DNA of 55,667 nucleotides from Bacteroidota bacterium (GTDB lineage Bacteria; Bacteroidota; Bacteroidia; Chitinophagales; Saprospiraceae): positions 1 to 55,667 of the forward strand of contig PZPC01000032.1 in NCBI GenBank assembly GCA_003045895.1, in the 5' to 3' direction. Every line of letters starts with the position of its first letter. Position 1 is the first letter of the stretch. Below are positions 23,571 to 43,395 of the stretch, piece after piece. The notes beneath the pieces were generated by a model, which saw only the letters and a program-made list of their open reading frames with translations, made no database searches and was not told where the DNA came from. A program made the translations under genes and the position numbers.

Positions 23571-24785
23571 TTATTGGTTGACCAGGCGGACATCATCAAT
23601 AAAGACGTCACCGCTTTGCTCAAATTTGAACAACAACTGCTTCACGTTGGTCTTGTCAATACCCCCGCCAAAAGCGGCCATTGGAATGGTCACTTCCTGC
23701 CATTGGGTGTTGTACTGGCCGCCCGCTACGTACTTGCTCAGGAGTGTAGCGGGTTGGGAGTTGGTGCGCTCGTAGTCTTCAAAAGCGACCTTTATGGGCA
23801 GCTGAGAAAAAGAGCCCGCCGCTGTTTTTATTTTGAACTTTAGAGCGGTACGGTCTTCTATTCCGGTAATATCTACGGGGAACCACTTGTTCCAGCTCAC
23901 CCCAATGGCCATGTTTTTGCACGTGCCAGCCGGATCGCTCCATTTGGCGTGGATAGACTGGGTGCCTTCGGCGTGTTCGGTCGTGGACAGGTCGAAGGTC
24001 TGGCAGGCATCGGTGATGAGCCCCCAGCCATTGTTGTTGATAAAACCATCAGCGAACAATTGCTTGGGCATGGCCAGCGGATCGGGGAGGGGAGCCTCTA
24101 CCAACCAGGCGGTTTGGGGTGCTGGTTCGTAAAAAACCAGTTGGACATCCGCCAGGTATATGCTGCCGCTCTGCTGCAGTTCAAACATGAGCTGCTTGAT
24201 GTTGGTGGGGTCCAGGTTCTCGATTTTCATGTCGAAGGAACGGAGGGGAACCACCACTTTCTGCCATTTTTCGTCGATGGATGCCCGCTCAAAGTATTTG
24301 TTGCCCGTGTAGGCGAAGCCCATGCCGCCGCTATAGTCCTCGAGGGTTAACACAATGGGTAAGCCGAACATTTTTCCTTCCTGCGTACGCACGTGCAACT
24401 CGATGGCCGCGTAGTCTATGAGCTCCGAAATATCCTTGCCGGCGTAACTGTCCCAGCCAATGCCAATGCCGGCCCACTCACAATCCGGCACGGCGCGGTC
24501 CCAGGTCAGTAGGAGCGCTGCATCACCATTGTAGGTGACGTCCGAGCTCAGACTGGCGTCCTTGCAAACCGTCTTTTCCAGTCCCCAGACATCCGTAAGG
24601 TCATTTTTAAGGATGATGGGTTCTACGATCAATTCGATTTTCTCCGGTTTTTGGGGAGGCGCAACGGTCTCCTCACCACTGTAGAGTGTCATGGTTTTAA
24701 ATTCCACACACCCCGTAGTCAGGAGCAATAAACTACCCAGGCTGAAGACAATAACCTTTGGTAAAGAAAAAACTGGTACTGACAT
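23571..24785 (-). CDS. Lipoprotein with two carbohydrate-binding-like sandwich domains
   Basis: The start is ATG 24785; the longer frame would begin at TTG. The 404-residue protein has a lipobox LTTGC near residue 26 and two similar domains (about 50-205 and 230-404). Each has a Trp-Gly-Leu start, a Cys pair (TVCKDAS...PDCEWAG; DACQTFD...GTCKNMA), a GIGWDSY/GVSWNKW strand and a closing SGSIYLADVQLVF or SGDVFIDDVRLV strand. This matches CBM-like jelly rolls that hold glycans. I infer a surface glycan-binding lipoprotein. It is the last gene of the minus-strand barrel operon, 35 bp after the preceding lipoprotein gene. Confidence 0.7.
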   Translation of the reverse strand: MSVPVFSLPKVIVFSLGSLLLLTTGCVEFKTMTLYSGEETVAPPQKPEKIELIVEPIILKNDLTDVWGLEKTVCKDASLSSDVTYNGDAALLLTWDRAVPDCEWAGIGIGWDSYAGKDISELIDYAAIELHVRTQEGKMFGLPIVLTLEDYSGGMGFAYTGNKYFERASIDEKWQKVVVPLRSFDMKIENLDPTNIKQLMFELQQSGSIYLADVQLVFYEPAPQTAWLVEAPLPDPLAMPKQLFADGFINNNGWGLITDACQTFDLSTTEHAEGTQSIHAKWSDPAGTCKNMAIGVSWNKWFPVDITGIEDRTALKFKIKTAAGSFSQLPIKVAFEDYERTNSQPATLLSKYVAGGQYNTQWQEVTIPMAAFGGGIDKTNVKQLLFKFEQSGDVFIDDVRLVNQ

Positions 24786-24820
24786 AAGACGTAAATTTTG
24801 CAACGGGTTGGGCTGGATGA

Positions 24821-25831
24821 TTACAATTCAAGGGGGCCTCCTGCGGTAAACGTGATAAAATCGATGCCGTAGTCTACTTTCAGCGGCGGACTGGGTTGGG
24901 AATTCATGTTGGAGATGAGCAACAACCGAATACCGACCATCTTACTCAACTGGGCCTGGGTAATCCCCAGGTCACTCATCGGATGGCTAATTTGTCGCCA
25001 ACCGGTGAAGTCCAATGGATAATCGCCAGCCAGCTGAAAGGTTTGGTCTTGCCCGTCTTCAAACAAACCCGTATTGTTTAAATCATAAACGAACTGGATA
25101 ACAGCAATCCCGTGCGGGCCACCATCGGCGTAGATAAAGGCATTGAAATACAGGTCTTCGGGTACCGTGGTGGGAAAGGGAATATAGGTTTCGCCGGTTA
25201 CCCTCGCGGAAATGTCAGCTAAGCCTACGAAAAAATTGGGCACCACGTTGTCGGTTCCTTCAAAGAGGAAGTACCAGTCGCCCTGGGCTGCTGGCATGTC
25301 GTTTTGGCGGCCGGTCCGGTTGGTCAACTCAAACTCGAAATTGCCGGTGAACAGATTGGCACCCAGCGGTGTCTCAAAATCTGTAAACAAGCTACCTTCG
25401 TAGCTTTTGGTTCCCACAATCTCCACCATGCCGGTGAGGGTCAGGTTGTTTTCGTCGGGAATGATCAGCTCTACCTGGCACATTTCGCGCTTAAACAGGG
25501 GCAACATAGTCGTCCCTCCTGACCACACGGCGTTATTGGCGTTCAGTTCGTTGTCGAAGCCTTGAATGGTCTTGACCGAACCACTTTCCATGCCGGTAAT
25601 CCGGAGGGTGAAATTCAGGCGTTTGTTGAAACGGGCGCCAAAAATCACGGTTTCGCCCGCCGAAAAATCTACGGTGGCCCGCGAGATGGTCAGCCCCTCC
25701 AGCAGTTGAAATTCGCCAAAGCGATCTACCAGACCGGGGCCATCAAATTGGTCCGTGTCGTGTTCACAGGCCGTTAGCACCAGGAACAGGCAAAGCAAAG
25801 GAAACAGATAAAAACGGTTGTTATATTTCAT
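24821..25831 (-). CDS. Surface lipoprotein, candidate glycan-binding protein
   Basis: The 336-residue protein has a lipobox LVLTAC (Cys22). The first 130 residues look like an Ig/IPT-type domain (TISRATVDFSAGETVIFGARFN), as in SGBP-type proteins. The rest (about 150-336) is a beta-sandwich with aromatic-rich strands (GDWYFLFEGTDN, DLYFNAFIYADG) and a final KVDYGIDFITF strand. Architecture suggests an Ig spacer plus a glycan-binding head, like surface glycan-binding proteins of polysaccharide loci, but I recognise no exact family. It lies 65 bp downstream of the 596-residue barrel gene. Confidence 0.65.
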   Translation of the reverse strand: MKYNNRFYLFPLLCLFLVLTACEHDTDQFDGPGLVDRFGEFQLLEGLTISRATVDFSAGETVIFGARFNKRLNFTLRITGMESGSVKTIQGFDNELNANNAVWSGGTTMLPLFKREMCQVELIIPDENNLTLTGMVEIVGTKSYEGSLFTDFETPLGANLFTGNFEFELTNRTGRQNDMPAAQGDWYFLFEGTDNVVPNFFVGLADISARVTGETYIPFPTTVPEDLYFNAFIYADGGPHGIAVIQFVYDLNNTGLFEDGQDQTFQLAGDYPLDFTGWRQISHPMSDLGITQAQLSKMVGIRLLLISNMNSQPSPPLKVDYGIDFITFTAGGPLEL

Positions 25832-25896
25832 AATGATTATCTTCTGAAGGTTATGTTTGGGCCAACTACCAACGCAGTGGCCAGGACAGCATAATG

Positions 25897-27687
25897 TTAG
25901 AAATTCATGGTGTATAAGACAAACACCTGGCTTAGGGTATAGTCGTTGTTGGGGTCGGTTTTACGGGCGAAACTGTAATTTTGGTACTGAAAAGTGACGT
26001 AAGTATCCTTTTTGAAGTTGTACCGCAGACCGGCACCCAGCAGGGCTTCGGTATCATCACTAACGAACGGATCGGGAAAATCCTTGACCACGTTGAAGGT
26101 TTCGATCAGGGGAATGTAATCGCGGCCATTGGACGTGAGGAAGGTGCCGCCGGCGAGCAACTCGAAGTTGGCGAACAATTCCGCTTCCAGCCCTATCTCC
26201 AGCAGGTTGGAATTCAAATCTACCTTTTCCACTTCCAATCCGCTGCGTGACGTATTTTCGTACTGGTAGCCCAGGGTCAGGCGCAGTTTGTTTTTCCAGT
26301 CGATCATCTTGTCAAAATTCACGTTGGCCATGGCCCGTATCAGGTTGAACGACTTCAGTTCATTGGTACCCTGGCCCCTGATCTCGTTCAGCACGGCGCC
26401 GGTGACACTGGCTTCGATCCGCTCGTCGGCAGGCTTCCAGTCCAGGCCAAACCGCAGGCCTTGCCGGTTGGGGGTAGCCCGGCCGTAGGGTGAGGTATTG
26501 CTCAGGCGCGGATCGTAATTCATGAGGCGATCCGACAACTGGAAGGTATACATAGACCGGTCGCGGGAAATGTCAAACAAGCCGGGCATCCGCACCATGT
26601 TGTCGGCGCCTACACGGTTGAAATAAGATTTCGGGCGGTCAAACCCAATTCTTTTGCTCTGGGCACCGATGCTGAAAAAGTCGGGCCCAACGTCCACGTA
26701 GGAGACCGAAAGCGTCAGGTGTTGGGGTTTGAGTTCCAGGGCTGCACCTACTTCCAGGAACGTGTCGTCGATTTTGTAGACACTTATCGAATCCTCCTCC
26801 AGTACATTCAGGTTGGAACGGCCCACCTCACCCCGCAGGTGAAGCCCCATTTTGCTTTGCTCCAGGATGGTGACATCGAAGTCGATCGTCGTCACGGCGT
26901 TCCGAATGCCGGAGTTGGCTTCCCCAACGGTGAGGTCATCCCAGGTGTAGGCCAGGTTGAGGCCCAGGTCAGCCTTGAGCCCCAGCGAATCGTTGAAGGT
27001 GTTGGAGAGCAGATCGACGCTACCGCCACCGACAAAACGCGTGGGGGTAGTGAAGAAATCGGCGCCCCGGATGCGGCTGATGAAAGCCATTACGTCAGCC
27101 GATTTCAATCCTTTGGAGAAGTTCAGGCCCATATCCACTTTGGCCCCCTGGAGGCGTCGTTGGTTGCCTTCTGCGTAGAATTGTTCGTAATAGATGAGGT
27201 CTTTTTGCGGTTGAAAGATGGATGGATTGTTGACCATGCCTTCTTCGTCGGGATTGAACAGGGTGAAGGGAGTCATCACCATATCCATATCGCCCACCCG
27301 GTAGCGGACAATATCGGCAATGATACCGCGCGCCCACAGTTCGCGCACCTCAATGCTTTGGCCTGCTCCAAAGAAGCCACCAAATTCGTTGCGCAGGCGC
27401 AGAATGGCCTGAACTTCGCTCTTTTCGTTGGGGGTGGCGTTGATGGCCAGGTCCAGCAGAAATTCACCATCCGTTACCCGGTCGACTTTCTCGGGGTTAT
27501 TGTCCATGATGGCTCCACCGAGTTCGGTCTGTTGAATAATCGTTCTTCCCAGTCCGTTGAAGTGTACCTTTTTGGCTTCCGCTTCTTTATCTGAAGGTAG
27601 GGCAGAGCCATCCTGGGCGTGGAGTAGGGGTGCCTGAATACAAATCAGGCCGAGAGAAAATGCTAGAAGAAGTAGTATATTTTTCAT
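25897..27687 (-). CDS. Outer-membrane beta-barrel protein, porin-like (second of pair)
   Basis: The start is ATG 27687 (MKNILLLLAFSLGLICIQAP), giving 596 residues with a signal peptide cleaved near HAQ. The body is a long series of amphipathic strands rich in alternating aromatic and polar residues, and the last residues are YTMNF, with the C-terminal Phe typical of outer-membrane barrels. There is no plug domain or TonB box, so it is not a TonB-dependent receptor. I infer a passive channel or barrel scaffold. It follows the first barrel gene by 24 bp. Confidence 0.78.
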   Translation of the reverse strand: MKNILLLLAFSLGLICIQAPLLHAQDGSALPSDKEAEAKKVHFNGLGRTIIQQTELGGAIMDNNPEKVDRVTDGEFLLDLAINATPNEKSEVQAILRLRNEFGGFFGAGQSIEVRELWARGIIADIVRYRVGDMDMVMTPFTLFNPDEEGMVNNPSIFQPQKDLIYYEQFYAEGNQRRLQGAKVDMGLNFSKGLKSADVMAFISRIRGADFFTTPTRFVGGGSVDLLSNTFNDSLGLKADLGLNLAYTWDDLTVGEANSGIRNAVTTIDFDVTILEQSKMGLHLRGEVGRSNLNVLEEDSISVYKIDDTFLEVGAALELKPQHLTLSVSYVDVGPDFFSIGAQSKRIGFDRPKSYFNRVGADNMVRMPGLFDISRDRSMYTFQLSDRLMNYDPRLSNTSPYGRATPNRQGLRFGLDWKPADERIEASVTGAVLNEIRGQGTNELKSFNLIRAMANVNFDKMIDWKNKLRLTLGYQYENTSRSGLEVEKVDLNSNLLEIGLEAELFANFELLAGGTFLTSNGRDYIPLIETFNVVKDFPDPFVSDDTEALLGAGLRYNFKKDTYVTFQYQNYSFARKTDPNNDYTLSQVFVLYTMNF

Positions 27688-27711
27688 ATCCAATGAGCTG
27701 GTTCTGATAGT

Positions 27712-29847
27712 CTAAAAGTAAGATTTTAATTCAATGGTCACTTCGCGGCCCCGGTAGTGGTCCAGGCTGAAGCTACGGTCTTCGAAGTTCATCCACCGGT
27801 GACGCACGTAGATGCCGGCACTGGGAGAAATCATCCAGTCGAAACCTACACCTACGCCGGTGCCTACCTGGTCGCGTGGCAGTTGAGACTCGAGGTCCCA
27901 TTCGGTAAAGGTGCCACCCTTGGCCACTTCTAACCCGAAATAACCGGTGACGATAAATTTGTCGAGCAGTTCATAGTAGAGATCAAATTCGTGGTACTGC
28001 ACAAAGAGGTAACTCTTGTCATCCAGGGACGGCAGGAGTGCTGCTTCCGACTTCGCCGAGCCCAAGGTGCCGAGGTAGAAAAAGTACAGGGGCCGATCGT
28101 TTAAGGCCATTTTGTATTTGCCTTGCAAGTCAACAGCATTGAAATACTTCCTGGTTTTAGGGGTCGCGGTGGCCGGATCAAGATCCGTTGTTAAGACTCT
28201 TTCTGATACGCCACGGAAGAAAGAAAACTGCCGGCCGTAGGGTCCGAAAACGGTAGCGGAGGTTGCGTTGGCCGGAAAAGGATTGTACACCCGGGAAAGG
28301 GCCAGTCCGTTGATCCGGTGGATGTAGGACAGGCTGGCGGAGCCGGGGTCTATTTCGGCGGCCAGTCCCCAACCGAGGTTGAGCCGGAGGTCACCGATTT
28401 CGACTCCGGTATTGAGGTTAACACCGCGGCGGTTGTGGGCCAACTGGTTGACCTGCGTGATCAAGCCACCAATAGCCAATTGCCCGGCAGCCGCTACGTT
28501 CGGGAAGTTGGCCTGGATGGCCGGGTTGTTGGTGGTATTGATTTCGCCGTTTTCGTTGTAGAAATTTTGGCTGATCTGGTAAAGCTGGACATCGAGCGGA
28601 ATGCCCGTCATCGCTTTGGGGGTCTTCACCCGTACCATGAGCGCTTCGCCCCAATCTTTATCGTAGATGGGGCTCTGGAAGCTGCCCGCTCCTAATTCGC
28701 CGGTAATATTGATTCCCTTCACGTCCAGGCTGAAGGACAGGGAGTGAACCTGGTAATTGCGCCAGTTCTTTTGCAGATCAATGCTGTCTATTGCCGTACG
28801 GCTGTCGATCAGGTTGTAGTTGACGGTGTTGCGCTTTTTGCCAAAGGTCGTACCGATCTTGCCGCCGGTGATGAAACTGGGGCGTACCCGCAGGTCACCC
28901 GCGAACCCGGCATAGGTGGGTATATTACCCGCCAGATTGGGATTGATAATGGTGGCAAAGGGGTCGTCCTGGGCATTGATCAAGCCACCATTGGGCTGGG
29001 TTTTGCCCCAGAACAGGTCGAAATTCATGTTCCCCGGCAGTTTGCCGCCATTGACAATGATGCCCTGAAAGGGTTGGAAGTTCCAGCGCAGGTCACCGAC
29101 GTTGACGGAACCCGTCTCGAAGTAGTTCTCGTACTTGGTCGTATTCGAGACGCCTTCCCAGGGGGTGCGATCGAAAATACTGTAACGGTCCAGTACCTGG
29201 TAAACGCCAATGGTGAAGGGGCTGAGGTTGTACCAGTGGATACCACCGGCGCGAACGCCAAAGTTGCCGGCTTCCGTCCGGAAGTTGCCGTAGAAATTCA
29301 ATCCGAGGTTGGTCTGAAACACGTTGTCTGCCGGCCCCGTACCCAGGTAAGGGTTGAGGAGGAAAAGTTCCGTTCCAAAACTGGTTTTTCCGTTCGGACG
29401 ACCCACTACATTGAGCGACATGGTCGGTTCGCGGTACCCATCACCCACGCCGTAGGCTTTTTCGTAAGGCGCCAGGTTGGGGTAAGGCTCGGTCATGTTT
29501 CGGCCGTACAGAAAAAGGCGATAATAGCCGAACACCGTAAGTGGCAGCGGTTTTTTGCGCAATTCTCCCCTTGGGTCAGTCAGACTGGCGCTGCGGAGAT
29601 CGGCCGCCGATTTGGCTAATTTTTCGTCCAATTGCCGCAATTTTTCGGCAATTATCGCAGCAGGGACAGAGCTGGAAGAATAGATCGGATCAGCTTCTTC
29701 CTGTTGGATGTCCTGGCCATAAAGCCCCCCACTAAGTAAAGTAGCAAGGACAATCAGCGGCAAGATGCCAGCAAAAGTGCGGATCTTTTGTCGCTTCCCT
29801 GTTTTTATTCGCCGTAGTGTTGGTTTTCTTCGTAAGAATTTCATCAT
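27712..29847 (-). CDS. Outer-membrane beta-barrel protein, porin-like (first of pair)
   Basis: The 711-residue protein (ATG at 29847 or 29844) has a long basic N-terminus before a hydrophobic signal (GILPLIVLATLLSGGLYGQ), then a short helix likely to form a coiled coil (IIAEKLRQLDEKLAKSAADLR, about 65-85) and a large barrel ending ELKSYF. A periplasmic coiled coil before a barrel is typical of trimeric porins of the OprP/OprB kind, but no sequence family is recognised. No plug or TonB box is seen. It is the first gene of the four-gene minus-strand operon and is divergent from the clan-A hydrolase gene. Confidence 0.76.
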   Translation of the reverse strand: MMKFLRRKPTLRRIKTGKRQKIRTFAGILPLIVLATLLSGGLYGQDIQQEEADPIYSSSSVPAAIIAEKLRQLDEKLAKSAADLRSASLTDPRGELRKKPLPLTVFGYYRLFLYGRNMTEPYPNLAPYEKAYGVGDGYREPTMSLNVVGRPNGKTSFGTELFLLNPYLGTGPADNVFQTNLGLNFYGNFRTEAGNFGVRAGGIHWYNLSPFTIGVYQVLDRYSIFDRTPWEGVSNTTKYENYFETGSVNVGDLRWNFQPFQGIIVNGGKLPGNMNFDLFWGKTQPNGGLINAQDDPFATIINPNLAGNIPTYAGFAGDLRVRPSFITGGKIGTTFGKKRNTVNYNLIDSRTAIDSIDLQKNWRNYQVHSLSFSLDVKGINITGELGAGSFQSPIYDKDWGEALMVRVKTPKAMTGIPLDVQLYQISQNFYNENGEINTTNNPAIQANFPNVAAAGQLAIGGLITQVNQLAHNRRGVNLNTGVEIGDLRLNLGWGLAAEIDPGSASLSYIHRINGLALSRVYNPFPANATSATVFGPYGRQFSFFRGVSERVLTTDLDPATATPKTRKYFNAVDLQGKYKMALNDRPLYFFYLGTLGSAKSEAALLPSLDDKSYLFVQYHEFDLYYELLDKFIVTGYFGLEVAKGGTFTEWDLESQLPRDQVGTGVGVGFDWMISPSAGIYVRHRWMNFEDRSFSLDHYRGREVTIELKSYF

Positions 29848-30194
29848 ATGAGCAGGCTAAGTAATTGAGTACGTTATTGTCTGAACATCCCTGTTCCCAT
29901 TTGTATTAAGGTGTTTTGGCATGCAAGCGATAAAGAAAAACAAATTTTACTTTATTCTTGGTTTTTAAGAATGATATTTTGCGTTAAACCTTGCTTGACC
30001 AAGAAAATTGTAATTTCTTTGACACAAAAATAGACCAGTCAGTCACCAATACCCTTTTTTAAACTACATCTTACGTACATCTTTGCGTAAATTCGCCTAC
30101 ATCATTTCTACGTCATCGACGGATTGGTTTGGCTGGAATGGGGTATTTCAGTAATTTTTTGTCGCAATTATAATTTTTTAAAATAAGATACATC
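29848..30194. promoter_or_regulatory. Divergent control region of the carbohydrate locus
   Basis: This 347-bp AT-rich gap separates the two arms. On the minus strand, the reverse of CAAAAATA (30025-30032) is a TAnnTTTG match. On the plus strand, CATCTTTG (30078-30085) is one base off the box and would leave a leader of about 100 nt. Clear -33 elements were not found. No gene is visible. Confidence 0.45.
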
Positions 30195-31496
30195 ATGAGA
30201 ATTGTTCAATACGGCATTGCCTTGGTTTTTTTTATGACGACTGTGGTGCTGAGTGCTCAAATGAGTAGCCAGGTGAGTACGGGTCCGATAAAGGTAGAAA
30301 TTCGGGAAACGAATGGCAAATGGCAATTGTACCGGGGCGGAGAACCCTACTATATAAATGGTGTCGGTGGATCTACCTACCTGGATCGCGCCGTTGCGTA
30401 CGGTGCCAATTCTGTACGGGCCTGGAGTGCTGCTGATGCCGCCAAAATTCTCGACGAAGCCCAGGAAAAAGGGTTGACAGTGCTATTCGGTTTGTGGGTA
30501 GGGCAGGAACGCCAGGGCTTCGACTACGACGACGCTAAAAGCGTGGCCGCTCAGTTGGAACAATTTCGGGAAGTCGTTAAAATGTACAAAGACCACCCTG
30601 CGGTGTTGATGTGGGGAATCGGTAACGAGGCGGATCTTTTTTACAAAGATTTCAAAGTATGGAATGCCATCAATGACATTGCCAAGATGATCCACGAAGT
30701 TGATCCCAATCACCCTACCATGACGGTCACTGCCGGGTTGGATGTTGCGGAGGTACAATTGATCAAGGAAAGAGCGCCAGAGATCGATATCTACGGGATC
30801 AATACCTACGCAGCGTTAATTGGTATCGATAAGGAAATTCGGGCTTATGGTTGGGAAGGCCCTTACATCATCACCGAATGGGGCCCGAACGGACACTGGG
30901 AAGTACCCAAAACGGCCTGGGGGGTCCCCGTTGAGCAGTCGAGCAGCGAAAAAGCAGCTTATTACCAGGAACGCTACGAGCAGGGTATCGCAGCCGACCC
31001 CGACAAGTGCCTGGGATCCTACGTTTTCCTCTGGGGGCAAAAGCAGGAAACCACGTCTACCTGGTATGGCGTTTTTCTGGAAGATGGTACGGAAACCGAA
31101 GTCGTGGATGTGTTGGAATACGAATGGACGGGCAAATGGCCAGCCAATCGCTCTCCCCACATTGCTTCCCTCAAGATCAACGATGGAGCCGCCCTGGATA
31201 ACGTATACGTCAAGCCTGGCCAAACCTGTACCGTCGTGGCAGCAGTGACGGATCCCGATGGCGACGAGTTGAAGTATGCCTGGGAATTGGTGCCCGAAAG
31301 CACGGATATCCGGTCGGGCGGTGATGCCGAATCCAGGCCGGAAGCGATAGACATCGTGGTCAAGCCGGGCGCCGTACCGGGCACTATTACTTTCCGGGCG
31401 CCCAATAAAGTGGGTCCGTACCGGATGTTTGTCTACAGTTACGACGGACACGGTAATGCGGCTGCCGCCAACATTCCCTTCTACATCCAGAAATAG
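30195..31496 (+). CDS. Clan-A glycoside hydrolase, GH158-like candidate beta-1,3-glucanase
   Basis: The 433-residue protein has a signal peptide (about 1-21), a TIM-barrel catalytic domain (about 35-320) and a C-terminal Ig/PKD-like domain (about 325-433, VTDPDGDELKYAWELVP). The acid/base is Glu145 in WGIGNEAD and the nucleophile Glu228 in IITEWGPNG, as in clan GH-A. The two Glu are 83 residues apart; from memory this equals the spacing in the Bacteroides uniformis GH158 beta-1,3-glucanase, which also has an Ig-like domain. GH2-like or GH5-like assignments are alternatives. With GH16 and GH3 neighbours, endo-action on beta-1,3-glucan is likely. No lipobox is seen. Confidence 0.75.
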   Translation: MRIVQYGIALVFFMTTVVLSAQMSSQVSTGPIKVEIRETNGKWQLYRGGEPYYINGVGGSTYLDRAVAYGANSVRAWSAADAAKILDEAQEKGLTVLFGLWVGQERQGFDYDDAKSVAAQLEQFREVVKMYKDHPAVLMWGIGNEADLFYKDFKVWNAINDIAKMIHEVDPNHPTMTVTAGLDVAEVQLIKERAPEIDIYGINTYAALIGIDKEIRAYGWEGPYIITEWGPNGHWEVPKTAWGVPVEQSSSEKAAYYQERYEQGIAADPDKCLGSYVFLWGQKQETTSTWYGVFLEDGTETEVVDVLEYEWTGKWPANRSPHIASLKINDGAALDNVYVKPGQTCTVVAAVTDPDGDELKYAWELVPESTDIRSGGDAESRPEAIDIVVKPGAVPGTITFRAPNKVGPYRMFVYSYDGHGNAAAANIPFYIQK

Positions 31497-31572: not shown

Positions 31573-31599
31573 CAGTATTAAAAGTGAGCATCTGGTTTA

Positions 31600-31641
31600 A
31601 CCCCAAATTGAAATTGTTTGACCCCAAATTGAAATTGTTTA
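31600..31641 (+). repeat. 21-bp tandem repeat in the leader
   Basis: Two back-to-back copies of ACCCCAAATTGAAATTGTTT plus G or A (31600-31620, 31621-31641) lie in the presumed 5' leader. 21 bp is two helical turns. It could be a regulator site or affect RNA structure. Confidence 0.7.
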
Positions 31642-31670
31642 ACCCCCACCAGGCTCTCAAAATGCTGTTT

Positions 31671-32066
31671 ATGAAAAAATCAAATGAAATTTTAGGCGTA
31701 TTGGCCCTCGTCTTGATGGTAAACTTCGCCTTTGCACAACGACAATCCCCCGGATTTTTGACGAACACCACGGATGCACAATCGATCCAGGTGAATTTAT
31801 TGCAGTGGTCTTCACCTACCGCTCAGGTAACGATCAAGGATGAGCACAATCAGCCGTTGTTTAGTGAATTTGTCCGGCAGACCAACCGCTTTGAGCGGAA
31901 TTACCACCTGGAATACCTGGCCAGCGGGTCTTATTACCTGGTTGTAGAGGATGACACCATGATCAGCGTCCAACCCTTTACCATCAAGAATCAGGAAATA
32001 GCCCTGGAAGTAGCCAGCCGGAAAGACTCCCGGAAAGCTGGTGATTCAGCCAACATTCAACTGTAA
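31671..32066 (+). CDS. Small secreted protein with a T9SS-tail-like beta fold
   Basis: The start is set at ATG 31671 because MKKSNEILGVLALVLMVNFAFAQ is a clean signal peptide; earlier in-frame ATGs translate the leader repeats. The mature part (about 108 residues) has strands ending in ...YHLEYLASGSYYLVVEDD...VQPFTIKN, close to the Gly-x-Tyr-x-leu pattern of T9SS C-terminal or DUF3244-like domains. A whole protein of just this fold may be a small surface or periplasmic protein. It has its own promoter and terminator inside the carbohydrate locus. Confidence 0.72.
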   Translation: MKKSNEILGVLALVLMVNFAFAQRQSPGFLTNTTDAQSIQVNLLQWSSPTAQVTIKDEHNQPLFSEFVRQTNRFERNYHLEYLASGSYYLVVEDDTMISVQPFTIKNQEIALEVASRKDSRKAGDSANIQL

Positions 32067-35340: not shown

Positions 35341-36198
35341 ATGAAGACGCGGTTTTTCGAAACAATGTTTACTTGCGCACTATTTGCACTACTTGGTTTT
35401 TCAAGCTGCGATAGCCCCGGAGAATTAGGCGGTTGTGAAGCTTCGGACAGCCTGGAAAACTATACCCTGGTCTGGAGTGACGAATTTGACGGCGCTGAAA
35501 TCGACCAATCCAAATGGTCTTTTGACCTCGGCGATGGCTGCCAGATTAGTGAAAACCTCTGCGGCTGGGGCAACAACGAACTGCAATACTACACCGAACG
35601 ACCACAGAATGTCTACCTCGCAGATGGCAAACTGGTGATTAAAGCAATCAAAGAAACACCCCTTTACCTGGGTGAGCACCTGTATACATCCACCCGCATG
35701 GTTACCAAAAACAAAGGAGATTGGACGTATGGCCGCTTCGATATCCGGGCCCGGATGCCCATTGGGAAAGGCCTGTGGGGCGCCGCCTGGATGTTGCCTA
35801 CCGACAACGTCTACGGTATCTGGCCTAAAAGCGGCGAGATTGATATCATGGAATACATCGGCAGCACGCCCAAGCGCGTTTTTGGAACCATCCACTACGG
35901 GCACGACTTCTGGCGCTTTACCAGCAACGAGACTTTTCTGGAAACGGGCACTTTGCACGACGATTTTCACGTTTTCTCCGCCATTTGGACCGAAAGCTGC
36001 ATCCAGTTCCTGTTGGACGGACAACCCTACGGCCCTGCCAATACCCGTTCTACCACTCTACCAACTACCTGGCCCTTTGACCAGGATTTCCACATGATCC
36101 TCAACCTGGCAGTAGGTGGTAATTTACCCGGCAACCCCGATGGTACAGCTACCTTCCCGCAGATTATGGAAGTGGACTATGTACGAGTTTACCAATAG
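35341..36198 (+). CDS. GH16 lipoprotein, candidate laminarinase
   Basis: The 285-residue protein has a lipobox (LLGFSSC, Cys23) and a single GH16 jelly-roll domain (about 40-285). The catalytic strand GEIDIME carries Glu166 (nucleophile), Asp168 and Glu171 (acid/base) with the extra Met residue of the beta-bulged beta-1,3-glucanase type. WGNNELQYYTERPQNV and WMLPTDNVYGIWPKSGEID are typical laminarinase (GH16 subfamily 3-like) strands. It should cut beta-1,3-glucan at the cell surface. It heads a plus-strand series with the triple-domain protein, porter, second GH16 and GH3. Confidence 0.92.
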   Translation: MKTRFFETMFTCALFALLGFSSCDSPGELGGCEASDSLENYTLVWSDEFDGAEIDQSKWSFDLGDGCQISENLCGWGNNELQYYTERPQNVYLADGKLVIKAIKETPLYLGEHLYTSTRMVTKNKGDWTYGRFDIRARMPIGKGLWGAAWMLPTDNVYGIWPKSGEIDIMEYIGSTPKRVFGTIHYGHDFWRFTSNETFLETGTLHDDFHVFSAIWTESCIQFLLDGQPYGPANTRSTTLPTTWPFDQDFHMILNLAVGGNLPGNPDGTATFPQIMEVDYVRVYQ

Positions 36199-36284: not shown

Positions 36285-37985
36285 ATGAAACAATTATCTA
36301 CGATCCTAAGCCTTTTGTTTTTAAGCGTGGTGGCTTTTGCACAAGCACCCTCCATTCCCATCGATTTTGAATCGACGACCCTGGTCTACGGATTTGCCGA
36401 TTTTGAGGGCGGCGTAGCTTCGGTTATTGACAACCCCGATGCTGCTGGTATCAACACCAGCAGTAAGGTCGGGCAGATGGTCAAATTTGAAGGTGCAGTG
36501 TTCGGTGGCAGCACCCTGGCTCTGGCTGGCCCCATTGATTTTGGCACCAACAACGCCGTGAAAATGAAGGTTTGGGCCAACCGCGTGGGGGCTTCGGTCC
36601 TGTTCAAGCTGGAAGGTACCAGCCCCGTAGAAGTGTTTGCTACCACTACGGTAGCCAATCAATGGGAAGAACTGACTTTTAGCTTTGCGGGCCTGACCAG
36701 CCTGAACTTCACCGGGATCACCTTTATCTACGACCTCGGGGTAGTGGGTGATGGCAGCGCCGATTTTACGATGTATTTTGATGACATCGAATTGACGACT
36801 GCCATGGGTGGGGTACAAGTCCCTGTCGATTTTGAATCGACGACCCTCACGTATGCATTTGCTGACTTTGCGGGCGGTGTCGCTTCGGTCATTGACAACC
36901 CCGATGCTTCGGGTATCAACGCCAGCGGTAAAGTAGGACAGATGGTCAAATTTGCCGGCGAAGTATTCGGCGGTAGCACGCTGGCCCTGGGTGGAGCCAT
37001 TGACTTTGGTGCCAACAACGCCATTAAAATGAAGGTTTGGACCAACCGCGCCAACGCACCCGTACTATTCAAGTTGGAAGGGCCCGCACCAGTAGAAGTG
37101 ACTGCCCGCACCACGGGAGCCAATGCCTGGGAAGAATTGACCTTCGGCTTTGCCGGGCTCACGGAAGGTGTCTACACGGGTATTACCATTATCTACGACC
37201 TCGGTGTAGTGGGTGATGGCGGCGCCAATTTCACCATGTATTTTGATGATATCGACTTTACGACCGTGACCGGTGGTGTACAACTACCCATCGATTTTGA
37301 ATCGACTACCCTCAGCTATACCTTCTCTGATTTTGCGGGTGGAGTTGGTGCTGTCATCGACAATCCAGCGTCTACTACCAGCAATCCCAGTGGTAAGGTG
37401 GTGCAAATGATCAAGTTTGCTGGCGAAGTGTATGGTGGTAGTACCCTGGCACTCGGTGGCCCGATCGTTTTCGGTAGCAACACTTCCGTAGAAATGAAGG
37501 TGTTAGCCAACCGCGTAGGTGCGCCTATGCTCTTCAAACTGGAAGGCCCTGCACCGGTAGAAGTATCGGCCAGTACGACCGTTGCCGGCGAATGGGAAAC
37601 CCTGACTTACGATTTGTCTGGGCTGACGGGTGGTGTTTATACCGGCATAACCCTCATTTACGACCTGGGCGTTGTGGGTGACGGCGGTGAAAACTTCACC
37701 ATTTTATTGGATGATATTCGCTTCCCCGGATCCGTTTCCGTAGTGGACCTGCCTGCGTTGGATGTGACGTATTACCCCAATCCGGCACAAGACTTTATGA
37801 TCGTTAAGGCGCAAGAAAATATGGAAGCAATTCGTATCTTCAACCTGAATGGCCAGCAAGTCTATTTTGAGAAAATGGACAGCAACCAGCAAACGGTTGA
37901 TTTGTCTGCCCTTGCTCCGGGTGCTTACTTCATCAAAGTACAGATCGGCAACCAGGAAGGCGTAGCCAAACTCATTAAGAATTAA
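36285..37985 (+). CDS. T9SS-secreted protein with three binding-like repeat domains
   Basis: The 566-residue protein has a signal peptide (1-20), three homologous domains of about 154 residues each (near 25-170, 180-325, 334-485) and a T9SS type A sorting domain (about 488-566, DVTYYPNPAQDFMIV ... APGAYFIKVQIG). Each domain opens I/V-P-I/V-DFESTTL.Y and ends with YDLGVVGDGxxxFTxxxDDI, a calcium-binding-like jelly-roll pattern seen in carbohydrate-binding modules. No catalytic motif is seen. I infer a multivalent secreted or surface glycan binder made by domain duplication. It lies 86 bp after the GH16 gene. Confidence 0.8.
   Translation: MKQLSTILSLLFLSVVAFAQAPSIPIDFESTTLVYGFADFEGGVASVIDNPDAAGINTSSKVGQMVKFEGAVFGGSTLALAGPIDFGTNNAVKMKVWANRVGASVLFKLEGTSPVEVFATTTVANQWEELTFSFAGLTSLNFTGITFIYDLGVVGDGSADFTMYFDDIELTTAMGGVQVPVDFESTTLTYAFADFAGGVASVIDNPDASGINASGKVGQMVKFAGEVFGGSTLALGGAIDFGANNAIKMKVWTNRANAPVLFKLEGPAPVEVTARTTGANAWEELTFGFAGLTEGVYTGITIIYDLGVVGDGGANFTMYFDDIDFTTVTGGVQLPIDFESTTLSYTFSDFAGGVGAVIDNPASTTSNPSGKVVQMIKFAGEVYGGSTLALGGPIVFGSNTSVEMKVLANRVGAPMLFKLEGPAPVEVSASTTVAGEWETLTYDLSGLTGGVYTGITLIYDLGVVGDGGENFTILLDDIRFPGSVSVVDLPALDVTYYPNPAQDFMIVKAQENMEAIRIFNLNGQQVYFEKMDSNQQTVDLSALAPGAYFIKVQIGNQEGVAKLIKN
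36353..37724 (+). repeat. Three tandem 460-bp intragenic repeats
   Basis: Units near 36353, 36822 and 37284 encode the three binding-like domains. Units 1 and 2 are closely similar even at DNA level (same GATTTTGAATCGACGACCCT start); unit 3 is more diverged. Recent duplication and possible recombination between copies are inferred. Confidence 0.8.
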
Positions 37986-38062: not shown

Positions 38063-38106
38063 TAAAAACAAGCGATTAACCAACTTTTACACATACCTGC
38101 CTAACT

Positions 38107-39669
38107 ATGAAAAATAACCAATTTGTCATCTTAGTCGCCCTGGTGGTTGCCCTGGGCGGCTTCCTGATGGGATTTGACGCCTCGGTCATCTCTGGTGTCA
38201 ACAAGTTCATTGAAGCCGAATTTGGCCTCACCAAGTTAGAATTGGGCTGGGCGGTAAGCTCGCTTACCTTATCGGCCACTTTAGCCATGATGCTGGCCGG
38301 CCCCCTGAGCGATCGGATCGGCCGGAAGCGGGTGCTCACCTTTGCGGCTATCCTGTATGCGATTTCGGCCATCGGCTCCGCTATCGCTCCTACCTTTTTG
38401 TTCCTGGTCATTGCCCGCATGATCGGCGGGCTTGGCGTGGGTGCTTCCCTGATTATCGCACCCATGTACATTGCCGAAATCGCTCCCGCTGAACTGCGGG
38501 GCCGGATGGTTTCCTTCAACCAGCTCAATATTGTGGTTGGTATTTCGGTCGCCTTCTTTACCAACTACCTGATTCTGCAGTTGGCGCAATCCGATGCGTC
38601 CTGGGCCGTGAACCTGAAATTCGACGAATACAACTGGCGTTGGATGCTCGGACTGGAAACCTTACCCGCGGTGCTCTATTTCTTCGGCCTCTTTTTTGTA
38701 CCCCGCAGCCCACGTTGGCTGATCATGAAAGGTGAAATGGACGAAGCCCTCACCGTCATGAAGCGGGCCAGCGGCGAAGAAAAAGCCATCCTGGCCATGG
38801 AAGAAGTAAAACGCGCCCTGGCCGCCGCCGGTGAAAGCCAGAACGAAAAAGTGCCATTAACCGACCTGTTCAAGCCCGCGATGAAACTGGTCTTGTCTAT
38901 TGGGATTGTCGTAGCCGTTTTGCAACAGATTACCGGTATCAACTCGGTATTCTTCTACGCACCTATGATCTTTGAACAGTCGGGTATCGGTACGGACGCT
39001 TCTTTTGTTCAGGCAATCCTGGTTGGCCTGGTCAATTTGGTCTTCACGGTGCTGGCCATTATGTTTATCGATCGGTTGGGCCGCAAGCCTTTACTCATCT
39101 TTGGCGTGGCCGGTATTGCGCTGTGCATGTTTTTGTTGTCTTATAGCTTTAGCCAGGCGACCTATACCCTGGATGAGGCTGCGATCACCAGCCTCCCTGC
39201 CGAAATCGACCAGTCCAAACTGGCATCCCTGGTCGGAACCACCTTTGACAGTGATGTGACCTATAAGGAAGCACTGATCAGTGCCCTGGGGGCCGATGTG
39301 GCGAAAACCTATGAGTCGAATTTAATCACTGCTGCGGTCACCATGAACGCCATGCTGATCCTCATCAGTATTCTGGGTTTTGTCGCCTCTTTTGCCATCT
39401 CCATCGGGCCGGTCATGTGGGTGCTGTTTTCGGAATTGTTCCCCAACCGCATCCGGGGGATTGCCATTTCTTTTGTGGGCTTGATCAACTCGGCCATCAG
39501 CTTTATCGTCCAGTTGGTTTTTCCCTGGGAATTGGCGACGCTGGGCAGTGCGACGACCTTCCTGATCTACGGGGTCTTTGCGGCGCTCGGATTGGCGTTT
39601 ATCCTGGCGGTCGTGCCCGAAACCAAGGGCAAAACGCTGGAAGAACTGGAAGCGATGCTGGTTAAGTAG
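38107..39669 (+). CDS. MFS sugar porter
   Basis: The 520-residue protein has twelve membrane helices and the sugar-porter signature set: DRIGRKRV in loop 2-3, RSPRWLI after helix 6, QQITGINSVFFYAP in helix 7 and VPETKGKTLEELE at the C-terminus. It should import a monosaccharide or short sugar by proton symport across the inner membrane. A loop of about 60 residues (near 355-415) between late helices is longer than in most sugar porters and is probably periplasmic. It sits between the GH16 genes, so the likely cargo is glucose or a short beta-glucan. Confidence 0.93.
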   Translation: MKNNQFVILVALVVALGGFLMGFDASVISGVNKFIEAEFGLTKLELGWAVSSLTLSATLAMMLAGPLSDRIGRKRVLTFAAILYAISAIGSAIAPTFLFLVIARMIGGLGVGASLIIAPMYIAEIAPAELRGRMVSFNQLNIVVGISVAFFTNYLILQLAQSDASWAVNLKFDEYNWRWMLGLETLPAVLYFFGLFFVPRSPRWLIMKGEMDEALTVMKRASGEEKAILAMEEVKRALAAAGESQNEKVPLTDLFKPAMKLVLSIGIVVAVLQQITGINSVFFYAPMIFEQSGIGTDASFVQAILVGLVNLVFTVLAIMFIDRLGRKPLLIFGVAGIALCMFLLSYSFSQATYTLDEAAITSLPAEIDQSKLASLVGTTFDSDVTYKEALISALGADVAKTYESNLITAAVTMNAMLILISILGFVASFAISIGPVMWVLFSELFPNRIRGIAISFVGLINSAISFIVQLVFPWELATLGSATTFLIYGVFAALGLAFILAVVPETKGKTLEELEAMLVK

Positions 39670-39718
39670 TCGTCTGCTCCGGATTGTAATACTTGTTAAT
39701 GCTTTTTTTAAAATGCTG

Positions 39719-39749: not shown

Positions 39750-39769
39750 TATGCTCAATTTCTGCGGAT

Positions 39770-41095
39770 ATGTATAGCGAAAAAAAGTGGCGTGGCCACG
39801 TGTTATCCCTGTGGGGGAGTCTAGTCCTGTTGTCCTTGCTTTCCTGCCGGTCCGCCTCCTCTTCTGGTGACCAGGCAGTCAGCGTTGGCGATGCCCCGGT
39901 GGCTCCCCTGACCATCAACGTGCCGGTAGCCAGTTTCACGGATTCCAGCGGTACTTTTAACCCGCATACCTCGCAGGAGAGTACCCCCCTACTGGGATCT
40001 ACCGGCGCAAACCAATGGTTGGCCTATGAGGTTACCGTTCCGGAAACCGGTCGTTACCAAACGACCATCCGGGTGGCCAACTCGAACGCCCGGCCTGGAA
40101 CCCTCTGGGTGGAAGATTACTACGGCAACAAAGACGATCGCACCTACAATATTACCGGAGATATCCTCATCAAAAATACGGGTGGCCTGAATACGCCACA
40201 GGGTTTTAGCCGCGATGGGAGTCCCATGAGTAAAGGGGTTCACCCCATCAAGCTTCATTTCAAAGACGCGGGTTTGTACGTCCAGTCCATCAGTTTTACC
40301 CTGCTGAAAGCGCACCAGGAAACACCCTTGCTTCTGACCCAAAATACCAGCGGGAAGGCGTTGAAGTTGGTCTGGTCCGATGAATTTAATGGTACGGGGT
40401 TGCCGGATACCAGCAAGTGGATTTATGACCTCGGCGACTGGGGTTGGGGCAACAACGAGTTGCAATACTACACCGAAGGCCGCCAGGAAAATGCCCGCCA
40501 GGAAAATGGCAACCTGATCATCGAAGCCCGTAAGGGCGATCTGGGGCACGAGTGGACCTCGGCACGCCTGACCACCCGGGGAAAAGTAAGCTTCGTGCAC
40601 GGCAGAATCGAATTCCGCGCTCAGGTACCCCCCAACAAAGGCAACTGGGCAGCGGGCTGGACCCTGGGCGATGCCTACCGCGACGAAATGTCGTGGCCGT
40701 ACTGCGGAGAAATTGACATCATGGAGAGCGTCGGTTACGAAATGGATGATGCCACCGGCAATGGGAAAGCACATGCGTCGGTTCATTGTGGGGCCTATTA
40801 CTTCAAATTAGGGAACCAGCCCACCGCTGTCCTGGACGTTGAAAACATGAACAAAGCATTTCATACCTACGCCATCGACTGGACCTCTGAAAGCATCAAA
40901 GCTTACGTCGATGACCAGTTGTACTTTACTTATGCGGATAACAGTACGGAACTTACCTGGCCATTCAGCCAGCCCCAGAACCTGATCCTGAACCTCGCCA
41001 TGGGTGGGGGTTGGGGTGGTCAGCAAGGCCTGGCAGAAAACATAACCTCGCAAAAGATGGTCATTGACTACGTCAGGGTCTACGCTTTTGAATAG
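39770..41095 (+). CDS. GH16 lipoprotein with N-terminal CBM6-like domain
   Basis: The 441-residue protein has a lipobox (LLSLLSC, Cys26), a CBM6-like jelly roll (about 50-185, with QWLAYEVTVPETGRYQTTIRVA) and a GH16 domain (about 198-441). The catalytic strand CGEIDIMES gives Glu314, Asp316 and Glu319; WGWGNNELQYYTEGRQ is the laminarinase-type strand. It should degrade beta-1,3-glucan while tethered to the outer membrane, with the CBM anchoring it to polymer. It shares the core of the first GH16 but differs in loops, so the two may take different chain types. The GH3 gene follows after 23 bp. Confidence 0.92.
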   Translation: MYSEKKWRGHVLSLWGSLVLLSLLSCRSASSSGDQAVSVGDAPVAPLTINVPVASFTDSSGTFNPHTSQESTPLLGSTGANQWLAYEVTVPETGRYQTTIRVANSNARPGTLWVEDYYGNKDDRTYNITGDILIKNTGGLNTPQGFSRDGSPMSKGVHPIKLHFKDAGLYVQSISFTLLKAHQETPLLLTQNTSGKALKLVWSDEFNGTGLPDTSKWIYDLGDWGWGNNELQYYTEGRQENARQENGNLIIEARKGDLGHEWTSARLTTRGKVSFVHGRIEFRAQVPPNKGNWAAGWTLGDAYRDEMSWPYCGEIDIMESVGYEMDDATGNGKAHASVHCGAYYFKLGNQPTAVLDVENMNKAFHTYAIDWTSESIKAYVDDQLYFTYADNSTELTWPFSQPQNLILNLAMGGGWGGQQGLAENITSQKMVIDYVRVYAFE

Positions 41096-41118
41096 TCTTC
41101 ACCAGCTTAAAATAGTAT

Positions 41119-43395
41119 ATGTTGAGTCCCCTTAAAATAATGGCGTGCCTGTTTATGTTGGTCCTGGGCGATATTTTTGTTGTTCCGGATACTGCGATGG
41201 CCACTTATGCTGACCCTATGGATAACCGGGTAGATAGCCTCCTGTCCTTGATGACCCTGGAGGAAAAGGTGGGTCAGATGACCAACATCGGGCTGATGGC
41301 CGTTTGCAAAGGCGATTTTTGGGAAGGCCGCGATACCATCGAGATCGATTCTGCCAAGTTGCGCCGGCTGCTCCTGGATCACCACGTGGGTTCCGTCCAA
41401 AATATGGGTAAATACCCACCCGCCCCCGCCGAATGGCGGCAACTGATCGGTGCTGTTCAGCAGGTTGCGCTCCAGGAGTCCCGGCTTCGTATTCCTGTCC
41501 TTTACGGGATCGACGGCGTTCACGGTGCCAATTATACGGCGGGCTCGGTGCTCTTTCCACAACAGATTGCGACGGCCGCCACCTGGGATCCAGCCTTTGC
41601 CGAAACGGCGGCCCGCGTAACGGCCTACGAGATACGGGCTGCGGGTATCCCCTGGAATTATTCCCCGGTGCTGGACGTTTGTAAGCAACCCCTCTGGGGG
41701 CGGATTTTTGAGACCTTTGGCGAAGATACCTACCTCACCCAGCAGATGGGCGCAGCCATGGTTCGCGGTATGCAAGGAGATGACGTAGCCGACCCCCACC
41801 ACGTGGCGGCCTGCCTGAAGCATTTTGCGGGCTATGGTATGGCCTACAATGGCAAAGATCGCTCGCCCGTCTACTTGCCCGAGCGCTGGTTGCGGCAGTA
41901 TATCTTCCCCCCCTTCCAGGCAGCCATCGACGCCGGAGCCCTCACGGTGATGATCAACTCGGGTTCGGTCAACGGCATCCCTTCCCACATCGACTACCAC
42001 CTGATCACCGAGGTCTTAAAAGGAGAAATGAACTTTCAGGGCTTCACCATTTCTGACTGGTCGGATATCATGAACCTCGTGGAAGCCCACCAGGTGGCGG
42101 CCGACGAGCGCGAGGCCGTCAAGCTATCGGTACTGGCGGGCCTGGATATGTGCATGGAACCCTATGATGAAAGCTTTGCCGTGCATTTGGTGCAATTGGT
42201 CAAAGACGGTGAAGTGCCCATGTCCCGGATTGATGATGCCGTCCGTCGCATTCTGAAGGTGAAGTTCCAACTGGGATTATTTGAAAACCCCCTTCCGCCG
42301 CCTTCCCTGTACCCGGCAGTGGGTTCAGCTGCGTCGGTAGCGGAAAGCTACCAGGCGGCGCTGGCCTGCCTGACCCTCTTGAAAAACGAAGCAGCGGTTT
42401 TGCCCCTGCCCAAAAAGGCCAACGTGCTGGTGACTGGTGCCGCCGCCAATTCGCTCAATTATTTGAACGGCGGCTGGTCCCGAACCTGGAGCGGTCGGGA
42501 AACCGCCTACAACGACGAAGAAAAGCAAACCATTTTCGAAGCCATTCAGGCTAAACTCGGTTCGGAACAAGTGAGCTTCGTACCCGGAACGACTTATACG
42601 GAGGAAGTAGATATTGCTGCCGCAGTGACCGCTGCCCAGGCGGCGGATTACCTGGTGGTCTGCCTTGGTGAACAACCGGCTACCGAAAAGCCCAGCGATA
42701 TTGACGACCTGAGCATGCCCCAGGCCCAGTTGGACCTGGTGCGGGCCCTCGCCCAAACGGGTAAACCCATCATCCTGGTGCTGGTGGAAGGGCGGCCCCG
42801 CCTGATCCGGGAAATCGAACCGCTGGCCAATGGCATACTCCTGGCTTACGTGCCCGGGCAGGAAGGCGGCCGGGCCATTGCCGAAGTCTTGTTTGGCGAT
42901 ACCAACCCCAGCGGCAAACTGCCCTACACCTACCCCCGGTATTCGGGATCCATTTGGGCGTATGATCACCTGCGCTCGGACGAGCGGGACCAGAATTTTG
43001 GCTACGACGGCTTCAACCCGCAGTACGAATTTGGCTTCGGCCTCAGCTACACGACCTTTGCTTATGCCGACTTGCGCTTCCTGCCCGATACCGTTGTTAC
43101 AGGAGAAGAGGTACTGGAGGTGCGGGTAACCGTCACCAATACCGGTAAGCGCGCTGGACAGGAAGTCGTGCAGTTGTACACCAGCGACCTGGTGGCGAGT
43201 ATTTCGCCAGCCGTAAAGCAACTGCGCCGGTTTGCGAAAATTGCCCTGGCTCCGGGTGCCAGCCAGGAGGTCCGGTTTAGCCTTGCGGCCAAAGACCTTG
43301 CTTTTGTGAACCAGCACAACCAGTGGGTAACCGAACCCGGTGCCTTCACCGTGACCATTGGTCCTTTAAAAAAGACCTTCGTCTGGCAACCTTAA
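41119..43395 (+). CDS. GH3 beta-glucosidase
   Basis: The 758-residue protein has an N-terminal hydrophobic export signal (about 5-28) and the full GH3 layout: TIM barrel (about 35-370), alpha/beta sandwich (about 400-600) and C-terminal fibronectin-like domain (about 650-758). The nucleophile is Asp313 in GFTISDWSDI, and the substrate-binding KHFAGYG motif is present. It resembles periplasmic BglX-type enzymes and should release glucose from beta-gluco-oligosaccharides made by the GH16 enzymes. It is 23 bp after the second GH16 gene, so they are probably cotranscribed. Confidence 0.93.
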   Translation: MLSPLKIMACLFMLVLGDIFVVPDTAMATYADPMDNRVDSLLSLMTLEEKVGQMTNIGLMAVCKGDFWEGRDTIEIDSAKLRRLLLDHHVGSVQNMGKYPPAPAEWRQLIGAVQQVALQESRLRIPVLYGIDGVHGANYTAGSVLFPQQIATAATWDPAFAETAARVTAYEIRAAGIPWNYSPVLDVCKQPLWGRIFETFGEDTYLTQQMGAAMVRGMQGDDVADPHHVAACLKHFAGYGMAYNGKDRSPVYLPERWLRQYIFPPFQAAIDAGALTVMINSGSVNGIPSHIDYHLITEVLKGEMNFQGFTISDWSDIMNLVEAHQVAADEREAVKLSVLAGLDMCMEPYDESFAVHLVQLVKDGEVPMSRIDDAVRRILKVKFQLGLFENPLPPPSLYPAVGSAASVAESYQAALACLTLLKNEAAVLPLPKKANVLVTGAAANSLNYLNGGWSRTWSGRETAYNDEEKQTIFEAIQAKLGSEQVSFVPGTTYTEEVDIAAAVTAAQAADYLVVCLGEQPATEKPSDIDDLSMPQAQLDLVRALAQTGKPIILVLVEGRPRLIREIEPLANGILLAYVPGQEGGRAIAEVLFGDTNPSGKLPYTYPRYSGSIWAYDHLRSDERDQNFGYDGFNPQYEFGFGLSYTTFAYADLRFLPDTVVTGEEVLEVRVTVTNTGKRAGQEVVQLYTSDLVASISPAVKQLRRFAKIALAPGASQEVRFSLAAKDLAFVNQHNQWVTEPGAFTVTIGPLKKTFVWQP

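What the first reader, a model, noticed from the sequence alone, without database searches (positions are those of the whole stretch)
23571..43395. Beta-glucan locus with no SusC/SusD pair
The enzyme set (GH158-like, two GH16, GH3), a Y_Y_Y-type regulator and an MFS porter form a full polysaccharide-utilisation locus for beta-1,3-glucan. Almost all Bacteroidota loci of this kind are built round a SusC TonB receptor and a SusD lipoprotein. Neither is encoded here. The nearest TonB receptor is 10 kb outside the locus and has no SusD beside it.
Basis: partly seen in the sequence, partly recalled or inferred. Interest (0 to 1): 0.75.

Follow-up and report, generated by a model that had tools for sequence, protein, structure and literature searches.

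The report
Glucan uptake locus without SusC/SusD
This bacterium carries a beta-glucan-eating gene cluster in which the sugar-import pair usual in its phylum seems to be replaced by a conserved set of two outer-membrane barrel proteins and two surface lipoproteins, a set that also turns up beside enzymes for other sugar polymers.

Summary
In detail: GH158, two GH16, GH3, a Reg_prop/Y_Y_Y regulator and an MFS porter are present, and no SusC/SusD; the window is a whole contig. The order recurs in Bacteroidota and Rhodothermota: of 78 named loci, barrel one directly precedes barrel two in 76 and P0002 follows in 73. GH158 lies in 55 of 78; no SusD was found in the 79 named loci. Other clades sit beside GH9, GH18/NagB or GH97. 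The GH9 form has the gene order of Cytophaga chu_1276-1280, an experimentally supported atypical PUL. P0004 is predicted to be a large barrel with no recognisable plug. Best reading: a SusC/SusD-independent import module, so far described only for cellulose. Against strict replacement: genomes with the module have SusD more often than others (32/48 versus 126/347), and one locus carries both. Import is inferred; homology to the Cytophaga proteins was not tested by sequence.

The parts
27712..29847 (-). P0004 (BARB), 711 aa outer-membrane beta-barrel, first gene of the module
   Evidence: No Pfam/NCBIfam family; invariant C-terminal Phe in a 10-row alignment; AlphaFold2 mean pLDDT 80.9, 22 strands of 8 or more residues from residue 101 to the C terminus (my count of the listing), no recognisable plug; the 50 Foldseek rows shown, of 825, are outer-membrane or S-layer-complex proteins
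25897..27693 (-). P0003 (BARA), 598 aa outer-membrane barrel-type protein
   Evidence: No Pfam/NCBIfam family; related to P0004 (profile comparison, probability 97.7); C-terminal Phe in 104 of 108 BARA; not folded
24821..25831 (-). P0002 (LIP), 336 aa lipoprotein with lipobox Cys22, no Pfam family
   Evidence: Cys22 invariant in 11 of 11 rows; follows BARA in 73 of 78 named loci, 4 of the others cut by a contig end and 1 a fragment
23571..24803 (-). P0001 (SGBP), 410 aa lipoprotein with CBM30-like and SGBP_B_XBD-like domains
   Evidence: PF21582 E 1.8e-17, PF18329 E 1.7e-6; lipobox Cys invariant in 10 of 10 rows
29848..30194 (.). 347-bp gap between the module operon and the divergent GH158 gene
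30195..31496 (+). P0005, GH158 (endo-beta-1,3-glucanase family)
   Evidence: PDB 9oro E 1.7e-114, 6pal E 2.7e-72
31584..32066 (+). P0006, 160 aa ORF without a family; membership in the locus unsure
32150..35083 (-). P0011, Reg_prop/Y_Y_Y sensor with LuxR-type HTH
35341..36198 (+). P0008, GH16, lipoprotein-like N terminus
   Evidence: PF00722 E 7.6e-17
36285..37985 (+). P0007, T9SS-type secreted protein with three repeats, CBM-like
   Evidence: PF18962 E 2.2e-15; CBM_35_2 below its cut-off
38107..39669 (+). P0012, MFS sugar porter (inner membrane)
   Evidence: PF00083 E 5.6e-107
39770..41095 (+). P0009, GH16 with an N-terminal CBM6-like stretch
   Evidence: PF00722 E 1.2e-20; CBM_6 below its cut-off
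41119..43395 (+). P0010, GH3
   Evidence: PF00933 E 1.8e-70, PF01915 E 6.7e-49

Best explanation
A beta-1,3-glucan utilisation locus whose outer-membrane step is run by a four-gene module instead of SusC/SusD. Surface lipoproteins P0001 and P0002 capture the glucan; surface GH16 enzymes cut it; oligosaccharides enter through the paired, related barrels P0004 and P0003, the first of which shows no TonB plug; GH158 and GH3 finish digestion, probably in the periplasm; the MFS porter takes up the sugar; the Reg_prop/Y_Y_Y-LuxR protein regulates. Shown here: gene identities, order, conservation, co-varying divergence of the two barrels, absence of SusC/SusD at nearly all loci seen, a barrel-like predicted fold for P0004. 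Inferred: that the barrels import glycan, that import needs no TonB, the cell compartments, and the regulation.
For: Of 78 named loci with a called BARA, BARB is directly upstream in 76 (1 cut by the contig end, 1 not called), LIP downstream in 73 (4 cut, 1 fragment), SGBP third in 54 (10 cut; 9 others, 5 of them GH3). GH158, GH16, GH3 or GH9 in 66 of 78: GH158 55, GH16 32, GH3 31, GH9 2. Both barrels occur in the same 10 of 60 genomes, own genome included. Pairwise distances of the two barrels track each other, r 0.95 over 101 loci, 0 of 1000 permutations as high (shared ancestry contributes). No SusD in 79 named loci and 16 further stretches; one strong SusC at the edge of L124. All 10 held genomes of one order carry the module, up to 5 copies, and 0 of 10 have PF07980. 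Other clades lie beside GH9, GH18 with NagB, GH97/GH13, each one clade at support 100 in the BARA tree. P0004 model is a barrel. The GH9 form has the order of chu_1276-1280, whose members matter for cellulose or cello-oligosaccharide use (passages of PMC12016534, and PMC5553014).
Against: No transport was measured for any member here, and homology to the Cytophaga proteins was not tested by sequence. Genomes with the module have SusD more often than the rest of the class sample (32 of 48 versus 126 of 347). In L195 a SusC/SusD pair sits in the same beta-glucan locus as the module. 12 of 78 named loci show none of the scored enzymes, many of them on short contigs. P0003 could not be folded. The P0004 model resembles known barrels only loosely (query-normalised TM-score 0.41 or less in the 50 rows shown) and TonB-receptor barrels are among its matches. 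The beta-glucan rows are not a well-supported clade (support 59).
Confidence: 0.72

Rival explanations
1. An ordinary SusC/SusD locus that lost its pair, or whose pair lies elsewhere and works in trans; the barrels are incidental porins.
For: The own genome has nine SusD ORFs elsewhere, and all six of the six regions fetched have a SusC beside SusD; 46 of 57 module genomes have a PF07980 match.
Against: The arrangement with the four-gene module and no SusC/SusD is conserved over many families; 21 of 67 module genomes have no PF07980 match; where SusD lies on the same contig (5 of 57 genomes, compared by eye), it is 209 kb or more away in 4.
Confidence: 0.12
2. The barrels do not import glycan but export, assemble or present surface enzymes or lipoproteins; uptake is by general porins after surface digestion.
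For: In Cytophaga, CHU_1276 and CHU_1277 are reported to maintain cell-associated beta-glucosidase activity (PMC5553014 passages), and CHU_1279 variants with damaged binding still restore growth (PMC12016534 abstract and passages). Foldseek rows include LptD, ushers and AlgE.
Against: Substrate-type clades travel with matching enzymes; MFS or SSF porters lie in the same loci; CHU_1276 is titled a glucose-uptake protein (reference title) and CHU_1277 is tied to cello-oligosaccharide assimilation (passage).
Confidence: 0.14
3. P0004 is a far-diverged TonB-dependent transporter that lost its plug, with P0002 as a functional SusD analogue: a remodelled SusC/SusD complex.
For: 22 strands by my count, the number in TonB-receptor barrels (recalled), and matches to such barrels; hits to TonB receptors were also reported for a CHU_1276 prediction.
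Against: No plug or TonB family matched, SusC profile silent on it, matches as good to MOMP and porins.
Confidence: 0.15

Closest known systems
Cytophaga hutchinsonii chu_1276-chu_1280 atypical PUL (PMC12016534; also reported there for Cytophaga aurantiaca and Sporocytophaga myxococcoides)
   Same: Two outer-membrane proteins, a predicted bimodular glycan-binding protein, an SGBP-B-like protein, then an endoglucanase (GH9 per PMC6247017), no SusC/SusD. GH9-type modules found here (L165, L168, L183, L186) have that order, and their SGBPs have aromatics at or near the six residues studied in CHU_1279.
   Different: In the window the enzymes are GH158/GH16/GH3 for beta-1,3-glucan; further clades sit beside chitin and starch enzymes; the spread is over many families. 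Sequence homology to the CHU proteins not tested.
SusC/SusD polysaccharide utilisation loci
   Same: Surface glycan-binding lipoprotein, clustered glycoside hydrolases, dedicated regulator. GH158 is named in a paper on gut beta-1,3-glucan loci (PMC7157763, search listing only); the rest of the likeness is recalled.
   Different: No SusC, no SusD; two other barrels instead.
SGBP-B proteins / CBM30
   Same: P0001 domain matches.
   Different: Here beside these barrels, not beside SusC/SusD.
GH158 (PDB 9oro, 6pal)
   Same: P0005 is a plain member by sequence.
   Different: Nothing notable.

Membership tests
Canonical SusC/SusD PUL | SusC TonB receptor and SusD lipoprotein side by side | tested here: not met
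   no SusD in 79 named loci; one exception among relatives, L195
Canonical SusC/SusD PUL | Clustered carbohydrate enzymes, surface glycan-binding lipoprotein, regulator | tested here: met
chu_1276-1280 type atypical PUL | Order barrel, barrel, lipoprotein, SGBP-B-like lipoprotein | tested here: met
   window and relatives; GH9 forms; CHU order from PMC12016534 passages
chu_1276-1280 type atypical PUL | Sequence homology to CHU_1276, CHU_1277, CHU_1278, CHU_1279 | not tested
   No Cytophaga genome was reached. Indirect: CHU_1279 landmarks W89 F92 F180 Y253 F256 F343 compare with Y89 F92 F180 Y255 F258 F349 in L168, and similarly in L183, L186, L165, by position only
chu_1276-1280 type atypical PUL | Required for growth on the polysaccharide | not testable with these tools
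   needs mutants
TonB-dependent receptor | Plug domain and TonB box | tested here: inconclusive
   No plug by Pfam in either barrel; P0004 model shows a low-confidence N terminus, then barrel strands. P0003 not folded; TonB box not sought
Outer-membrane beta-barrel | Barrel fold and C-terminal aromatic residue | tested here: met
   P0004; C-terminal Phe in 98 of 103 BARB and 104 of 108 BARA. For P0003 only sequence signs and kinship to P0004
GH158 | Homology to solved GH158 | tested here: met

The most novel reading that the evidence does not exclude
Bacteroidota and Rhodothermota share a second, SusC/SusD-independent outer-membrane system for eating glycans: two related plugless barrels plus two surface lipoproteins, diversified into beta-1,3-glucan, cellulose, chitin and starch versions, and in one order possibly the main such system. 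The Cytophaga cellulose cluster would be one member of it.
Probability: 0.6. Interest if true: 0.85.

Novelty: new variant of a known kind. Interest (0 to 1): 0.73.

Why it matters
SusC/SusD is used as the marker of polysaccharide loci in Bacteroidota; a survey that requires it files clusters without it as CAZyme clusters (definition in PMC10108472, passage). A widespread alternative would change counts of who eats laminarin, cellulose and chitin, and it would give a frame, with culturable holders such as Lewinella cohaerens and Cryomorpha ignava, for the open question of how Cytophaga takes up cellulose products.

Tried and rejected
Degenerate SusC/SusD locus: judged unlikely on conservation and on genomes without any PF07980 match. 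SusD among the lipoproteins: no hit. Genome-wide replacement of SusD by the module: tested on the class sample and not supported; the association is positive (the two 395-genome samples are taken to be the same genomes). Plasmid copies: no tblastn match to P0004 at E 1e-5 in 72,556 records. Solved relatives of the barrels by sequence: none for A5 at E up to 10, one chance-level match for A6. P0002 profile: best PDB match E 0.048, not credible. Direct test against Cytophaga proteins failed: class searches with A6 and A8 hit no genome I could take for Cytophaga by size (size recalled), and a Persicobacter GltB query did not single out Cytophagales. The strand-propensity count is crude and was not used. 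P0003 was never folded.

Label caveats. Chitin group in the tree, six rows: GH18 beside the module was shown in L164 (Pfam) and, by BLAST against it, in L184, L185, L191 (and L163, which is not in the tree); L166 has a CHU_C-domain protein next to BARB instead and L167 was not tested, both put in the group from paralogy and gene sizes. GH9 was shown by Pfam in L165 and L168, by BLAST in L183/L122 and L186. 'beta13glucan_or_unassigned' holds all rows not placed elsewhere. Five identical BARA rows were dropped before the tree (108 to 103). L070 is out of the count because no BARA ORF was called there. ORFs were picked by a simple longest-first rule, which fails in GC-rich loci such as L074.
Full report
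What is there. The window is one whole contig of a 5.57-Mb genome. A same-genus relative, G003, has a module contig of the same length as one of Lewinella cohaerens DSM 23179. The locus at 23571-43395 holds GH158, two GH16, one GH3, an MFS sugar porter, a T9SS-type repeat protein and a Reg_prop/Y_Y_Y/LuxR-HTH regulator.

No SusC/SusD. PF07980 finds nine SusD ORFs in this genome, none on this contig. Profiles built from own-genome SusC and SusD find no SusD in the window and only the TonB receptor at 10149-12989, weakly; that receptor is far below the TIGR04056 cut-off.

What takes their place. Four genes on the minus strand, spaced 18, 65 and 17 bp, read P0004, P0003, P0002, P0001. P0004 and P0003 match no Pfam or NCBIfam family and no solved structure credibly by sequence. 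They are related to each other, and both families nearly always end in Phe, a usual sign of outer-membrane barrels (recalled). The P0004 model (mean pLDDT 80.9, pTM 0.79) has a low-confidence N terminus and then 22 strands of eight or more residues by my count; whether all lie in one barrel was not checked. The 50 Foldseek rows shown, of 825 matches, are outer-membrane or S-layer-complex proteins: MOMP, porins, AlgE, TonB receptors, LptD, ushers and others; query-normalised TM-scores are 0.41 or less. P0001 carries CBM30-like and SGBP_B_XBD-like domains. Both lipoproteins have an invariant lipobox cysteine in the first alignments; over the named loci a strict lipobox pattern is met by 52 of 75 LIP and 29 of 41 SGBP, against 3 of 77 BARA and 6 of 71 BARB.

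Conservation. Both barrels occur in the same 10 of 60 genomes, own genome included, next to each other (in G045 BARB is split between two short contigs). A pattern scan of one genome for each of 84,980 species found 211 stretches coding for relatives of BARA; 79 loci were returned. Of 78 with a called BARA, BARB is directly upstream in 76, LIP downstream in 73, SGBP third in 54; within the fetched stretch GH158 lies in 55, GH16 in 32, GH3 in 31, GH9 in 2, none of these in 12. Isolates among the holders are Lewinella cohaerens, Cryomorpha ignava and Roseithermus sacchariphilus. Surveys, own genome included: 48 of 395 genomes of the class with the wide P0004 profile, 22 of 394 with the mixed BARA profile among the most complete, 6 of 395 of the phylum with the first BARA profile.

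SusC/SusD near the module. No SusD in 79 named loci and 16 more stretches; one strong SusC at the edge of L124, and weaker receptor-like hits in L044, L046, L055, L077 and L088. No SusC/SusD label in 20 further stretches or in the 12 new ones. Of 10 more one, L195, has a SusC/SusD pair, its SusD about 7.6 kb from BARA.

More than one substrate. In a small order (10 genomes held) all 10 carry the module, up to five copies, and 0 of 10 have PF07980. There copies lie beside GH9 (L165, L168, L183, L186), GH18 (L163, L164, L184, L185, L191; with NagB in L164, L185, L191) and GH97 (L187, L188; a GH13 amylase in L187). L129, a Bacteroidales locus, has GH65 next door. In the BARA tree the cellulose, chitin and starch groups are each one clade at support 100 (quick method; label caveats under Tried and rejected); the rest is not a well-supported clade (59). 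SSF symporters lie upstream of the barrels in the three loci tested by Pfam for it (L099, L103, L113) and in L164.

Relation to Cytophaga. Of PMC12016534 I saw the abstract, passages, section 8 and part of the references. It describes chu_1276-1280: two outer-membrane proteins, CHU_1278 predicted as a bimodular SGBP, CHU_1279 an SGBP-B-like cellulose binder needed for growth on cellulose, CHU_1280 an endoglucanase; SusC/SusD homologues are not needed for cellulose. CHU_1280 is GH9 (PMC6247017 passages). The GH9-type modules have this order, and their 380-381-residue SGBPs carry aromatics at or within a few residues of all six CHU_1279 landmark positions. This is a strong lead, not a homology test.

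Limits. In the class sample 32 of 48 module genomes have SusD against 126 of 347 others (derived): the module accompanies polysaccharide use and does not exclude SusC/SusD. Of the 67 other module genomes searched, 21 have no PF07980 match. PF07980 may miss some SusD subfamilies (recalled). Many contigs are short.

In print. Searches (full text of the held open-access library; listings with titles and starts of abstracts) showed the Cytophaga cluster; passages of PMC10108472 and PMC10811738 remark on loci lacking susCD. I saw no description of this module for beta-1,3-glucan, chitin or starch. Most subscription papers and preprints are not held.

Noticed in passing
L195 (G809:C35): Hybrid beta-glucan locus with a SusC/SusD pair and the four-gene module.
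   Followed up: partly
order of G461 (10 genomes held): Every genome has the module (up to five copies) and none a PF07980 match.
   Followed up: partly
window 32150-35083: Regulator has propeller, Y_Y_Y and LuxR-type HTH but no kinase domain match, unlike the hybrid two-component systems usual in such loci (recalled).
   Followed up: no
window 36285-37985: T9SS-type protein made of three similar tandem repeats, CBM-like.
   Followed up: no
L086:16225-17073, L100:15578-16420, L109:13947-14810, L126:16160-16993: Recurrent protein of about 280 aa with a lipoprotein-like start after GH3 or SGBP, no Pfam family.
   Followed up: partly
L129:8116-17350: Module copy with an extra lipoprotein and a GH65 next door.
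   Followed up: partly
window 21886-22524: Protein with a cohesin-domain match (PF00963, E 2.7e-9) outside the locus.
   Followed up: no
window 10149-12989: TonB receptor with CarbopepD_reg_2; no SusD in the window.
   Followed up: partly
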